From assembly GCA_039680785.1 (NCBI GenBank), contig JBDKSF010000043.1, positions 1 through 64,000 on the forward strand: a stretch of DNA of 64,000 nucleotides, in the 5' to 3' direction. Positions 41,969 through 56,837 of this stretch are shown here, one piece after another; within the stretch, counting starts at the first letter, position 1, and each line of letters begins with the position of its first letter. The notes beneath the pieces are model-generated. The model did not search any database. It was given only the letters and a program-made list of their open reading frames with translations, and was not told where the DNA came from. This stretch comes from Candidatus Cloacimonas sp. Its GTDB lineage: Bacteria > Cloacimonadota > Cloacimonadia > Cloacimonadales > Cloacimonadaceae. The position numbers and the translations under genes are program-made.

Positions 41969-42328
41969 ATGAATTTAACAAACTGTCCCATCTGTAAAAG
42001 TGAATTGAAAGTAAGGGAATTATACTGTCCTCATTGTGAAGTTAGTTTTAAAGGTGATTTCCAAACCAACTGGCTGGCAGATTTGAATGCGAGTCAATTA
42101 GAATTTATTCGTTTATTTGTATTGGTTCAAGGCAACTTGAAAGAACTGCAGGACAAGCTGGGAATTTCCTATCCCACAGTAAAAAATCGTCTGGCAGAAA
42201 TAATCGGCGTCATCACTAAAAAGAAACCGCAAACCGATTCGGTCATTGATGTTTTATCCGATTTGGAAGAGGGTTTCATCAATGTGGAAGAAGCCATAAA
42301 TGTGATTAAACAAAGGAGAGAAAAATGA
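41969..42328 (+). CDS. DUF2089 family zinc-ribbon / HTH regulator
   Basis: A 119-residue small protein. Two Cys pairs (NCPICKSEL and YCPHCEVSF) form a zinc ribbon, followed by a helix-turn-helix-like segment (LKELQDKLGISYPTVKNRLAEI) and a C-terminal motif VLSDLEEGFINVEEAINVI. The family is thought to regulate the gene beside it. Here it overlaps the next gene by 4 bases (ATGA), and that protein ends in the same kind of motif. The ATG at 41969 is preferred because of GGAGAAGAGG; longer readings are not supported. Confidence 0.85.
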   Translation: MNLTNCPICKSELKVRELYCPHCEVSFKGDFQTNWLADLNASQLEFIRLFVLVQGNLKELQDKLGISYPTVKNRLAEIIGVITKKKPQTDSVIDVLSDLEEGFINVEEAINVIKQRREK

Positions 42329-43701
42329 ACAAAATCAATCTGGAGAAAAAATGGGTTTTTGAACCCTTGAACAAAGTAATTATCGATAATCACTCAGCCA
42401 AATTGTATTTACGCAATAGCGCAGAGAAAGAGGTTTGCCTGGAAGGGAGCATCGTTTTTAACCACTCTCAGGATGATTTTCAAGGAGAGGATTACATTCA
42501 ATTCGATTATCAGGATGGGAAGTTATTTATAACCTTGGCTGAAATTGATGCGGATGATTTTAAAGAAGCGGTTTTTACTGTCAACCTACCGGAAGGTGTT
42601 TATCTGAGCATTAAAACAGATAACTATTCTACGAATCTGGATAACCTGGTAAACAGCATTAAAGTGCTAAATGAAAATGGTCCTATCTATTTGCAAAACT
42701 GTAAAGGTGATATGCACTTAGAGAATGAAAACGGGATGATTCGCCTGTTAAATTGTGAGGGAAATATTTTTGCCAAGTTAGAAAACGGTCCCCTGTCCGC
42801 TGCCAAAATTAGTGGCCAGTCCCTGCATCTGGAAAATGAAAACGGTCCTTTAAAAGTGCATTTGTCTGCCTTTCCGGAAGTGAATTTGTATTCCGAAAAC
42901 GGACCTCTATATTTTGTGACTGCGCCAGTGGAAAACGGCAATTTTCAATTAAAAACCGAAAATGGACCAATCGTTCTTGTTTTACCTAATGATTTGGATT
43001 TCACTTTGGAAGCAAATACACAATGGGGCAGAATCAAAACTACTTTTGATTTGCCAATATCCGCTGATGATGATACTTATACTATTATTAACGGAGAAGG
43101 AACCACTATCATAAAGGCAAGTTCCGATAATGGAACTATCAAAATCAATTCCGAAAATCGCCTGGATTTGGACTTCATAATGCGCAAATTGGAACAGCTT
43201 AGAATTTCTATGCAAAAAGTCCATACCGAGGAAGAAAAACAGAAAACAGTGGAAATGGTTAATATAATTGTTACCTATGTTAATCGCCTTGCGAGCTCCA
43301 TCAAAGAAGAAAAAATAAAAGATAAAGTAAATTCCGCCACCAGCAGATTAAAAGATTTGGTAACTAACTTTGATTTTCGCGAGACAAACGACAAAGTGAT
43401 TAAAAATGTGGAAGAAATCGGAGCTCAGATTCAAGACGGACTAAAAGAAGGCATTAAAAATATCAAAGAAAGCGTGGATGACTTCAAAAAACATCATTTT
43501 CACACCGAATCTGTATCTGCCTATATTAAGAAAATTCTGGATTCACCTCAAATTAAACCTTATCTGGGAGGAGAACACAAGAAAAAAGAAAAAGAAGATG
43601 TTACTGGCCGCAGCAGAATAAAAATACTGGAAATGTTGGAAGCCGGGAAAATTACGGCTGAAGAAGCAGAACGGCTGTTAAAAGCAATTGGGAAAGAATA
43701 A
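42325..43701 (+). CDS. DUF4097-like beta-helix protein with C-terminal SHOCT-like motif
   Basis: A 458-residue protein with no signal peptide, so probably cytoplasmic. Residues about 25-260 are a DUF4097-type right-handed beta-helix with a repeated Glu-Asn-Gly-Pro turn (LNENGPIYLQN, LENGPLSA, LENENGPLKV, YSENGPLYF, KTENGPIVLV). Residues 285-420 are charged and helical, perhaps a coiled coil. The end (IKILEMLEAGKITAEEAERL) closely matches the end of the DUF2089 protein encoded just before. The pair resembles membrane-stress or self-sensing modules, but the function is not known. Confidence 0.78.
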   Translation: MNKINLEKKWVFEPLNKVIIDNHSAKLYLRNSAEKEVCLEGSIVFNHSQDDFQGEDYIQFDYQDGKLFITLAEIDADDFKEAVFTVNLPEGVYLSIKTDNYSTNLDNLVNSIKVLNENGPIYLQNCKGDMHLENENGMIRLLNCEGNIFAKLENGPLSAAKISGQSLHLENENGPLKVHLSAFPEVNLYSENGPLYFVTAPVENGNFQLKTENGPIVLVLPNDLDFTLEANTQWGRIKTTFDLPISADDDTYTIINGEGTTIIKASSDNGTIKINSENRLDLDFIMRKLEQLRISMQKVHTEEEKQKTVEMVNIIVTYVNRLASSIKEEKIKDKVNSATSRLKDLVTNFDFRETNDKVIKNVEEIGAQIQDGLKEGIKNIKESVDDFKKHHFHTESVSAYIKKILDSPQIKPYLGGEHKKKEKEDVTGRSRIKILEMLEAGKITAEEAERLLKAIGKE

Positions 43702-43703
43702 AA

Positions 43704-43809
43704 GGTCGAGGAGTCGAGAAGTCGAGAGGTCAAAAAGTCGAGAGGTCAAAAAGTCGAGAGGTCGAGAAGTCGAGAAGTCGAGAGGTCAAAAAGTCGAGGG
43801 GTCGAGAGG
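43704..43809 (+). repeat. GTCGAGARG 9-nt tandem repeat (copy 1)
   Basis: About a dozen copies of GTCGAGAAG/GTCGAGAGG, some followed by TCAAAAA. It starts two bases after the preceding stop codon. The same unit occurs in reverse orientation at 56706-56808. Confidence 0.9.
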
Positions 43810-43818
43810 AATGTCTTC

Positions 43819-44354
43819 TGTGACTTAAAACTGGTTTTCATTGGGATGGTCAAGATTTGTATGCTTGCAGCATATCTTTTTGCCTGCCCTCTCTTTACAC
43901 TGTCAGCCCAAAGACCAGTTTTGAGTTACAGCAAGACACACTTTCACACCAATCTGACCGATCTGTGACTTAAAACTGGTTTTCTTCATACCAAGAAGAG
44001 CTTTTTACCAAGACAATATATATATATAACTTGCCTTCGCTTTACACAGTAAACCCAAAGTCCAGTTTTGAGTTACAGAAGAAAAAGCACAAATCCAGTG
44101 GATAAACCCCGGTTTTTCATCAGGCAGGTCAAGATTTGTATGCTTGCAGCATATCTTTTTGCCTGCCTTCGCTTTACACAGTTAGCCCAAAGACCAGTTT
44201 TGAGTTACAACAAGAAATATTTTCACACTAATCTGACCGATCTGTGACTTAAAACTGGTTTTCTCTTTACCAAGAAGAGCTTATTACCAAGGCAATATAT
44301 TTATAACTTGCCTTCGTTTTACACATTCAATCCAAAGACCAGTTTTGAGTTACA
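43819..44354 (+). repeat. Four-unit array of about 112-nt hairpin-forming elements
   Basis: Units at 43819-43930, 43964-44077, about 44097-44209 and 44243-44354. Each runs from TGTGACTTAAAACTGGTT to GACCAGTTTTGAGTTACA (unit 3 has a decayed left end). Types alternate A-B-A-B, and the whole is a duplication of a roughly 279-base A-B pair. In units 1 and 4 the ends pair over 18 positions, with three G-U pairs on the plus strand and no mismatch; unit 2 has one U-U mismatch. Inner stems are present too: GGCAGG/CCTGCC and TATGC/GCATA in unit 3, AAGGCAA/TTGCCTT in unit 4. No ORF. Confidence 0.85.
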
Positions 44355-45102
44355 ACAAAATTGCATTGAATTATCGGCCCCTTGACAACATTTGAATTAC
44401 CACATAAAGATATATTTCGTGACTATTTTGTAGCTGTTATAAATTATATTTTTACTTCAGTTTTTAAAAAAAAGATTATCATATAATGTAAATGTGAAAA
44501 AGCATAAAGCAGGGATTTAACAAAATCTACGAATTTGTTTTATTAGATATGACAGCTAAATTTAAGTTCAGTTTTGGAATGAAACTTTCACTATCATTCT
44601 TTGTGTAAAGTGGAATCTTATAAATGGATAAAAAATAATTTTTAAAATGATAGTTGACTAAAGGGTGCAGAGGATGTTATATAAGAGACAGCAGGAAGTT
44701 CGTTATCTAATTTCTAAACTTAATAATTCTGGTAAAGTTAAGCTACAGACAGTTCACTTAGTTCATCCATTAACGATACAGTAACATTTCCGTAACACTT
44801 CTCTAACGAGATAAGAGTAGTGTAAGAGAAGTGTTACTGGAATATAACGCAAAGCAGCAAGTTTCAATAAATTAGCAAAGTAGGGTGTAGTAGCTTGCCA
44901 AAATGGGCGATAAATATATCTAACCTCTTATTATTTAATATGGATACGCTATCTTGTTTGGCTCTTTTCTGCTTTATTTTGTTTTTTCGGAGGTGGGATT
45001 CTGGCAGTGAAATCCTTGTTATCTTCCCTAAAACCCCTTTTTTTCTATCTTGCTGTAAGTAAATATCTTAGCGCAAATAAGGGAAATCGCATCCGCAAAA
45101 AA
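44355..45102. other. Gene-free region between hairpin array and recO
   Basis: About 750 AT-rich bases without an ORF. It holds a promoter-like TTGACA (44382-44387) with TAAAGA 17 bases later and no gene downstream, and the GTAACA element copy B at 44778-44845. Nothing else was recognised. Confidence 0.5.
44778..44845. repeat. GTAACA quasi-palindromic dispersed element, copy B
   Basis: ACAGTAACATTTCC, then GTAACACTTCTCT (44792-44804), a 20-base centre, and the exact reverse complement AGAGAAGTGTTAC (44825-44837). The most symmetrical of the three copies. No T-run follows it. Confidence 0.75.
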
Positions 45103-45858
45103 TCAAGCATTGTAAAATTGAGCTAAAACGGATAGTCCTTTTAGATGCAATGCCTGTTTATGATGTGCCTGCCAATAGAGTTCAAAAACGGTGTTGATTT
45201 CGTTGACAACTGCCCTATTTATTTTTATATCTTCCAGGTGATTAGCTATTTCAGGCAATAAAGTTAAGATATTTCTTGCCGGGGGTGAAAGAATCATTAA
45301 TGCGTTATCTGGATTGATTTCTGGCAAACATTTCTCACAAACCAGTCCACCTTTTGTTTTGAGATAGGCGATGGGAACGGAGAGGGGCTTTTTGCATAAA
45401 CAACAATAACTTAAAGGATTTCCGATGCCACTTAGGATGGTAATTCTGTTTAAAAACCGCCAAAAAATTAAAATTGCATTATTATTCACTTTTTGCAAAT
45501 ATGTGAGGCAGGAAATGGTAAGATCATAAATTGTGGCTATATCTTCTTGAGATATAATAAGTTGGCTTACTAATTCCAGACAGGTTTCCGCAGCCGTCCA
45601 AGTTGCAGAATTGGCATAAACGGAAAAATCCCGTATTAGAAATGCCTCGCTAAATAGCCATAAACCTTGTTCTTTCGGTTCGTAGGCAATAAGCTCATAT
45701 TCACAAAGAGGGAGTAATTGTTGTTTTTCGTTATTTTTCAGTATGCCTTTGGCGAGAACTCCGATATGTCCAAATTCGCGGCTGAAAAATTGCAGGATTA
45801 AACTGCTTTCGCTATACTTGCTTTGCTTGACAAGAATTGCGCGTAATTTGTTCTTCAA
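45103..45858 (-). CDS. recO: DNA repair protein RecO
   Basis: RecFOR-pathway mediator that loads RecA on single-strand DNA coated with SSB. 251 residues: N-terminal OB fold (RAILVKQSKYSESSLILQFF), helical domain, and a four-Cys zinc site (CCLCKKP ... LVCEKCLP). The start overlaps the stop of the upstream NFACT gene (ATGA). The end falls beside the repeat-rich gap at 43.7-45.1 kb; no terminator was identified. Confidence 0.9.
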   Translation of the reverse strand: MKNKLRAILVKQSKYSESSLILQFFSREFGHIGVLAKGILKNNEKQQLLPLCEYELIAYEPKEQGLWLFSEAFLIRDFSVYANSATWTAAETCLELVSQLIISQEDIATIYDLTISCLTYLQKVNNNAILIFWRFLNRITILSGIGNPLSYCCLCKKPLSVPIAYLKTKGGLVCEKCLPEINPDNALMILSPPARNILTLLPEIANHLEDIKINRAVVNEINTVFELYWQAHHKQALHLKGLSVLAQFYNA

Positions 45859-56243: not shown

Positions 56244-56650
56244 CACTACCTAACTGGCTTTTTTACATATCTTTTCATTCTTGCACAGTATCTTCATTAT
56301 AATATTATTATAATCTCATCTATTACAACAAATTGCAACGATATTTTCACCCTGTGTTTCACCTTTCCACCTTTTCACTTTTCCACTTTTTCACCTTTCC
56401 ACTTTTTCACTTTTTCACTTTTTTTGCGGAGGAACAGCGTCCTCCGACTACACCTTTCCACCTTTTCACTTTTCCACCCTTCCACCCTTCCACCCTTCCA
56501 CCATTCCACCTTTCCACCTTTCCACTTTTACACTACCTAACTGACTTTTTTACATATCTTTTCATTCTTGCACAATATCTTCATTATAATATTATTATAA
56601 ATCCATCTATTACAATAAATTGCAACGATATTTTCATCCTGTGTTTCACC
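56244..56650 (+). repeat. 120-nt direct repeat, 287 bases apart, with pyrimidine tracts
   Basis: 56244-56363 and 56531-56650 match with few differences and no gaps (CACTACCTAACTG to GTGTTTCACC). After each copy follow CACTTTTCCAC-type pyrimidine repeats (to about 56430 and 56705). A copy of the 31-nt hairpin element is inserted between them. Confidence 0.8.
56426..56452 (-). repeat. 31-nt hairpin element, minus-strand copy
   Basis: On the minus strand it reads TGTAGTCGGAGGACGC then TGTTCCTCCGC, matching the units at 41.8 kb at 22 of 27 positions. CGGAGGA/TCCTCCG forms a short stem. Confidence 0.75.
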
Positions 56651-56705
56651 TTTTCACTTTTCCACTTTTTCACCTTTCCACTTTTCCACTTTTCCACCTC
56701 TCCAC

Positions 56706-56808
56706 CTCTCGACTTCAAGACCTCTCGACCTCAAGACCCCTCGACCTCAAGACCTCTCGACTTCAAGACCCCTCGACTTCAAGACCTCTCGACCCCTCGA
56801 CCCCTCAA
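56706..56808 (-). repeat. GTCGAGARG 9-nt tandem repeat (copy 2, inverted)
   Basis: On the plus strand CTCTCGACTTCAAGAC and CCCCTCGACCTCAAGAC recur about eight times; the reverse complement is the GTCGAGAGGTC unit of 43.7 kb with TTGAA in place of AAAAA linkers. Confidence 0.85.
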
Positions 56809-56837
56809 CCCCTCCACCCCAAGCCCCCTCCCCACTT

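What the first reader, a model, noticed from the sequence alone, without database searches (positions are those of the whole stretch)
43819..44354. Tandem array of RNA-like hairpin elements with no known match
Four units of about 112 nt alternate A-B-A-B. In units 1 and 4 the 18-nt ends, UGUGACUUAAAACUGGUU and GACCAGUUUUGAGUUACA, pair completely on the plus strand, and their only exceptions to Watson-Crick pairing are three G-U pairs; unit 2 adds one U-U mismatch. On the minus strand the same three positions would be A-C mismatches, which suggests selection on an RNA copied from the plus strand. Inner stems (GGCAGG/CCTGCC, TATGC/GCATA, AAGGCAA/TTGCCTT) strengthen this. Types A and B differ in their middles while the ends are shared. 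A transposon-like (MITE) origin of the ends is the alternative.
Basis: partly seen in the sequence, partly recalled or inferred. Interest (0 to 1): 0.72.

Follow-up and report, generated by a model that had tools for sequence, protein, structure and literature searches.

The report
Transposase-linked long hairpin repeats in Cloacimonadota
The four hairpin units are one local array of a repeat class with well over a hundred copies in this bacterial genus; it travels with a REP-type (single-stranded-DNA) transposase gene, so it is most likely small mobile-DNA debris rather than a new RNA gene, although it is an unusually long and, as far as I could find, undescribed version.

Summary
In detail: four ~112-nt units, A-B-A-B, with 18-20-bp complementary ends. 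Unit 3 has a decayed 5' arm. The interpretation as an RNA is not the best one. The array occurs once in its own genome and at the same place, downstream of the same gene, in two sister species, with a compensated stem change (T-A versus C-G). Its end motif (GACTT-stem / stem-GAGTT, with a fixed G.T wobble) defines a repeat class with at least 24, 35, 59 and 20 exact-motif copies in four genomes of the genus and almost none elsewhere. Copies lie between genes, singly or in arrays in which two subtypes always point in opposite directions. In three genera, RAYT-like Y1 transposase genes are flanked by these same hairpins. Best reading: non-autonomous, REPIN/BIME/TIRtron-like elements recognised as folded single-stranded DNA by a TnpA-REP-type enzyme. 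The window array is a diverged, single-locus, same-orientation member. New relative to known REPs: no GTAG foot, 17-27-bp stems, a ~110-nt unit and a fixed wobble. An RNA role for this array is not excluded. Mobility was inferred, not shown.

The parts
43819..43930 (+). unit 1 (type A) hairpin element; arms 43819-43838 and 43911-43930
   Evidence: z -5.3
43964..44077 (+). unit 2 (type B); arms 43964-43983 and 44058-44077; one T-T mismatch in the stem
44097..44209 (+). unit 3 (type A); intact 3' arm 44190-44209, degenerate 5' arm (14 of 20 positions pair)
44243..44354 (+). unit 4 (type B); arms 44243-44262 and 44335-44354
   Evidence: z -8.2
43931..43963 (+). 33-nt spacer, repeated after unit 3 (44210-44242) and similar in G001 (GCAAGACA..CTGACCGAT), so the ~145-nt (unit + spacer) block or the ~279-nt A-B pair was tandemly duplicated
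42325..43701 (+). 458-aa gene upstream of the array (SHOCT-like DUF2089 C-terminal domain, weak LiaG similarity); orthologues precede the array in G001 and G008
43705..43809 (+). 8-bp tandem repeat (GTCGAGAR) directly before unit 1; shorter versions in G001 and G008

Best explanation
The units belong to a class of non-autonomous, hairpin-forming intergenic elements of the genus, cognate to a clade of RAYT (TnpA-REP) Y1 transposases. One element is about 73-116 nt: a ~17-27-bp terminal stem whose foot reads 5'-(T)TTGACTT.../...GAGTTAAA(A)-3' with an invariant G.T wobble, a stem interior that varies but stays paired, and a 20-85-nt loop. Inferred mechanism: when one strand is single-stranded (for example during replication), the element folds, the Y1 enzyme recognises the asymmetric hairpin on that strand, and cuts and rejoins it, so elements spread and form arrays of opposed pairs, as REPs, BIMEs and REPINs do. 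The window array is a diverged member (foot CTGTGACTTAAAAC) that sits at one locus in three species, has no copies elsewhere, and expanded by tandem duplication; it is probably now immobile. Shown: membership by motif and structure, pairing, dispersal, and linkage to RAYT genes. Inferred: ssDNA recognition, cleavage and mobility.
For: Orthologous arrays in G001 and G008 with a compensated stem change. Motif-only search TTTTGACTN{82,106}AGTTAAAA: 24, 35, 59, 20 and 8 hits in G000, G001, G008, G007 and G006; 0-2 in the other genomes of the 61, about the level of the reversed-pattern control. Of 121 distinct matches held, 108 pair at all 9 further stem positions that the pattern leaves free and 116 at 8 or 9; of 80 chance matches in viral contigs 1 does. 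36 distinct arm pairs: 97% of cells paired against 78% in shuffles, covariation 0.484 against 0.144, collapsing when slid by one. RAYT-like genes (PF01797; NF047646 hit by 10 of 10; profile hits TnpArep 4er8 at 1.5e-6) lie between these hairpins in G001 and G008 (one orthologous locus) and G004 (another locus, four hairpins), and beside them in two other genera, G015 and G017. More distant RAYTs in G004 and G012 are flanked by hairpins with their own motif. 148 of 149 copies lie outside ORFs of 150 aa or more; 35 of 35 mixed neighbours face opposite ways and 14 of 14 same-type neighbours are tandem. Short-loop version in G004, G006, G005 and G017 with zero control hits.
Against: No RAYT of this clade was found in the window's own genome; the best hit is a 34% partial match to a different RAYT. 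That genome is in 122 contigs, some of which end inside such arrays. The window units are all in one orientation and have no dispersed copies, unlike the mobile subtypes. No element was caught moving: the one site polymorphic between species lies in diverged intergenic DNA, so no junction could be read. NF047646 scores of the two G001/G008 genes lie below the curated cut-off. No foot motif of the known GTAG type.
Confidence: 0.74

Rival explanations
1. A structured RNA: the array is transcribed from the plus strand, for example as the 3' UTR of the upstream gene, and the hairpins act as RNA (stability elements, regulators).
For: Plus-strand wobbles and compensated change; kept downstream of the same gene in three species, co-oriented with it; REP-type repeats can act in mRNA (PMC3733652).
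Against: Class-wide opposite orientation of subtypes and RAYT linkage; unit 3 has lost its 5' arm; inner stems not conserved; no sigma-70-like promoter or terminator pattern found in 43600-45110 (weak evidence); no Rfam match.
Confidence: 0.14
2. MITEs of a classical DDE (IS630-like) transposon with terminal inverted repeats and target-site duplications.
For: Length and TIR-like ends resemble MITEs; one G007 copy lies against an IS630-type transposase fragment (read from its sequence).
Against: No consistent flanking duplication in G007 copies; stem interiors differ between subtypes but stay paired, which binding of plain TIRs does not require; the linked gene is a Y1 transposase.
Confidence: 0.06
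3. Integron-type attC sites (recombination hairpins) in a cassette array without integrase.
For: Folded asymmetric strand, GTT at the foot, tandem arrays; a toxin-antitoxin-like pair sits between arrays in G000 C99.
Against: No integron integrase above cut-off in nine genomes of the genus; no RYYYAAC/GTTRRRY core; subtypes alternate in orientation; most spacers carry no genes.
Confidence: 0.02

Closest known systems
TIRtrons / TIR repeats with TIRYT transposases (Di Nocera et al. 2013, PMC3733652)
   Same: RAYT-like gene flanked by long inverted repeats unrelated to GTAG REPs; moderately abundant dispersed copies, in dimers or clusters
   Different: Described TIRs often share GGGGWSAS, absent here. 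Whether those repeats are complete hairpins on each side with an asymmetric wobble was not checked. I found no report for Cloacimonadota in the held library.
REPINs with RAYTs (Bertels and Rainey 2011, PMC3116915)
   Same: Non-autonomous intergenic unit of two inverted ends with a spacer, forming one long ssDNA hairpin; compensatory changes; tandem clusters; linked RAYT
   Different: REPIN ends are themselves REP palindromes with a GTAG/GTGG-like foot; here the ends are not palindromic and the foot is TTTGACT/AGTTAAA
REP/BIME/REPtron (Nunvar et al. 2010, PMC2817692; TnpAREP, PMC8266576)
   Same: RAYT flanked by two inverted hairpin repeats; arrays of alternating orientation; strand-specific hairpin with conserved irregularity
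   Different: REPs are 20-50 nt hairpins with GTAG; these are 73-116 nt with long stems and no GTAG
TnpA-REP subclass 2.6 (PMC6006769)
   Same: YIHxNP tyrosine motif and NHxH motif close to those here; genes flanked by 'atypical secondary structures' without GT[AG]G, repeated in the genome
   Different: Described mostly from Bacteroidetes with weaker structures; subclass membership not tested by tree

Membership tests
RAYT (TnpA-REP) for the linked gene | Y1_Tnp domain with HUH and catalytic Tyr motif | tested here: met
   PF01797 above cut-off; invariant PNHxH and AYIHxNP in 10 of 10; profile hits 4er8 TnpArep at 1.5e-6; NF047646 hit but below cut-off for the two genes scored
REPtron / TIRtron | gene flanked by two inverted copies of a repeat also found elsewhere in the genome | tested here: met
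   G001, G008, G004:C28 both sides; G015 and G017 one side seen
canonical REP | 20-50 nt palindrome with GTAG/GTGG foot | tested here: not met
   73-116 nt, foot TTTGACT or TGTGACT
REPIN | two inverted REPs, each an imperfect palindrome, joined by a spacer into one hairpin | tested here: not met
   long hairpin present, but the arms are not palindromic by themselves and lack a REP core (direct reading)
BIME-like arrays | neighbouring repeats in alternating orientation | tested here: met
   35 of 35 t1/t2 neighbours opposed; the window array itself is same-orientation
any RAYT-mobilised element | transposase acts on the element | not testable with these tools
   needs biochemistry or excision reads
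integron attC | IntI and RYYYAAC/GTTRRRY cores | tested here: not met
   sequences
DDE MITE | target-site duplication | tested here: inconclusive
   no consistent duplication in G007 copies; no clean empty site
Rfam RNA family | covariance-model match | tested here: not met
   only a tRNA in the window

The most novel reading that the evidence does not exclude
The window array is a former transposase hairpin that has been domesticated: kept by selection on its structure at one locus in three species and working as an RNA or protein-binding array for the upstream gene, derived from a RAYT system whose enzyme reads a fixed G.T wobble and a GACT foot instead of GTAG.
Probability: 0.13. Interest if true: 0.72.

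Novelty: new variant of a known kind. Interest (0 to 1): 0.46.

Why it matters
It ties a conspicuous 'orphan RNA' candidate to a mobile-element system and gives a whole-genus data set (well over 100 copies, several subtypes, at least two independent RAYT loci with cognate hairpins) in which enzyme and hairpin foot appear to have changed together. That makes it testable how TnpA-REP enzymes choose their strand when the usual GTAG foot is missing, and it warns that covarying, plus-strand-biased hairpins are not by themselves proof of an RNA.

Tried and rejected
Integron attC: no IntI, no core motif. CRISPR or simple tandem repeat: no short direct repeats with unique spacers; spacers are duplicates. 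Phage or plasmid origin: no match; pattern matches in viral contigs do not pair. IS630 MITE: no consistent duplication. DGR link: two G007 copies lie behind FGE-type genes and one near an RT fragment, but most copies do not. L009/L010 motif hits in the own genome lie inside apparent genes and look like chance. Empty-site comparison gave one shared insertion (G000 C90 = G001 C32) and one absent site without a readable junction. Single-sequence PDB search of the RAYT found nothing; the profile did.

Full report
Check of the observation. The four units lie where stated, alternate A-B-A-B, and repeat as a 279-bp dimer at 90% identity over 192 nt. The end motif occurs seven times in the window against 0.02 expected. 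Plus-strand RNA folding is far better than dinucleotide shuffles for units 1, 2 and 4 and weaker for unit 3. Folded as DNA, units 1 and 4 also favour the plus strand slightly and unit 2 does not.

Copies of the array. In the own genome (G000, 2.07 Mb, 122 contigs) the array is unique at BLAST level. Of 60 relatives, only G001 and G008 of the same genus have it, directly after the orthologue of the 458-aa upstream gene (77% and 66% identical) and after a similar 8-bp tandem repeat. G008 has two units; G001 has two complete ones and contig breaks inside the array. The stem interior AAAACTGG/CCAGTTTT of the window is AAAACCGG/CCGGTTTT in both relatives: a change on both sides, and the wobbles stay. 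By length and sequence the relatives resemble type B; type A has a replaced middle.

A wider class. Downstream of the orthologous gene in G007 there were two hairpins with other stems but similar feet. A scan for GAC...GTT with complementary arms showed that these, the window units and many others share one plan: TTTTGACTT-stem, loop, stem-GAGTTAAAA. A motif search without any pairing condition found 24 copies in G000, 35 in G001, 59 in G008, 20 in G007 and 8 in G006, and close to none in the rest of the family and order, about equal to the reversed-pattern control. A shorter-loop version occurs in G004, G006, G005 and in another genus (G017) with no control hits.

Structure. Of 121 distinct motif matches held, 108 pair at all nine stem positions that the pattern left free (mean 8.7 of 9; 6.1 when partners are swapped among elements), with 63 G-T and 6 A-C pairs. 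Of 80 chance matches in viral contigs only one pairs at eight or more. On 36 distinct arm pairs the 17-bp helix has 97% standard pairs and strong covariation, which collapses if the partner is slid by one base. The arms in that alignment were partly selected for pairing, so the motif-only test is the cleaner one. The wobble at stem position 0 (G.T) is present in all 145 elements scored (the scan there required that foot, but the 121 pattern matches did require it as well, so its fixity is a property of the motif, not an independent test), and position 4 is often T.G. Outside these two motif positions the plus-strand excess is modest, about 11 G-T against 3 A-C in the core (counted). The strand argument therefore rests mostly on a conserved asymmetric foot, not on many independent events.

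Arrangement. 148 of 149 copies lie outside ORFs of 150 aa or more. Neighbours of different subtype always face opposite ways (35 of 35), most often with 16-17 nt between their 5' ends, and neighbours of one subtype are in tandem (14 of 14). In such pairs no single transcript can contain both elements in the well-pairing strand, whereas a single-strand DNA enzyme can meet each on its own strand.

The linked gene. In the orthologous G001/G008 locus a 192-215-aa gene sits between a type-2 and a type-1 element, whose 5' feet face it. It is a Y1 transposase (PF01797 above cut-off), and the REP-associated transposase model NF047646 matches all ten relatives, though below its equivalog cut-off for the two scored. 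A profile of the ten has TnpArep 4er8 as its only significant match among solved structures, at 1.5e-6. At a different place in G004, a 60% identical gene is flanked by four short-loop members with feet TTTGACTTA/TGAGTTAAA. In two other genera the homologues in G015 (62%) and G017 (49%) have a member beside them, while more distant ones in G004 and G012 are flanked by hairpins with another motif. Across 80 relatives in GTDB genomes, long hairpins are ten times denser near the gene than further away (0.77 against 0.077 per kb). The association with the window's motif therefore rests on at least two independent flanked loci (G001/G008 and G004) and two half-observed ones.

Interpretation. The architecture is that of REPtrons and BIMEs: an enzyme gene between inverted copies of a hairpin, plus copies of the hairpin pair without the gene. 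TnpA-REP enzymes bind folded single-stranded REP in a strand-specific way and use the foot and irregularities of the stem (PMC8266576). REPINs are long hairpin units with compensatory changes (PMC3116915). RAYT genes with long inverted repeats instead of GTAG REPs, with repeat families in dimers or clusters, were called TIRtrons (PMC3733652), and subclass 2.6 genes are flanked by atypical structures lacking GT[AG]G (PMC6006769). The present class works like these but does not meet the definition of a REP or a REPIN in foot and length. It is closest to TIRtrons and is filed as a new variant.

The window array itself. It shares the foot core GACTTAAAA/TTTTGAGTT with members flanking RAYTs in G004 and G017, but has TGT instead of TTT outside it, lies only at one locus, in one orientation, and its genome shows no cognate RAYT. 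It looks like an old insertion that multiplied in tandem and evolves in concert. One unit is already broken. Conservation of the stem in three species could be residual or could reflect a later use; transcription data were not available.

Limits. Movement, cleavage and expression were not shown. Genome handles carry no species names; G008 is a single 2,246,820-bp contig. Some array sequences are lost at contig ends. The literature search covered open papers only and found no description of these repeats in Cloacimonadota.

Noticed in passing
L131:3664-6712 (G000 C99): A pair of genes resembling a toxin-antitoxin system (385-aa XRE/ImmA-like, weak NF052239 match; 176-aa neighbour) sits between two arrays of these hairpins, as if carried or framed by them.
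   Followed up: partly
window 43705-43809 and 56357-56818: 8-bp tandem repeats (GTCGAGAR and relatives, CACCTTTC, ACCTCTCG) in two intergenic regions; the first precedes the array in three species.
   Followed up: no
G008, query part ~119-251 (L152 region): Another dispersed, self-complementary repeat of about 90 nt (GGGTAAGCAATG..) with more than 30 places in G008, hit on both strands.
   Followed up: no
L137:1720-1770 (query 1622-1669): A short repeat around GGTTTTGAACCCAGCG/ACAGTCCATTC occurs at dozens of places in G000 and G001.
   Followed up: no
L099:5238-5528 and L096/L097: In G007 two hairpins lie just behind FGE-type genes ending in ..GFRVCRVSP / ..GFRCVRVSP (diversity-generating-retroelement target-like) and one near a reverse-transcriptase fragment (GLPVGNLTSQFFANIYA).
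   Followed up: partly
L039, L040, L041, L046, L047, L048, L053, L054: In other genera of the family the orthologue of the upstream gene is followed by what looks like a tRNA gene (read from sequence) and an ABC transporter gene; in the three array-bearing species that neighbourhood is gone.
   Followed up: partly
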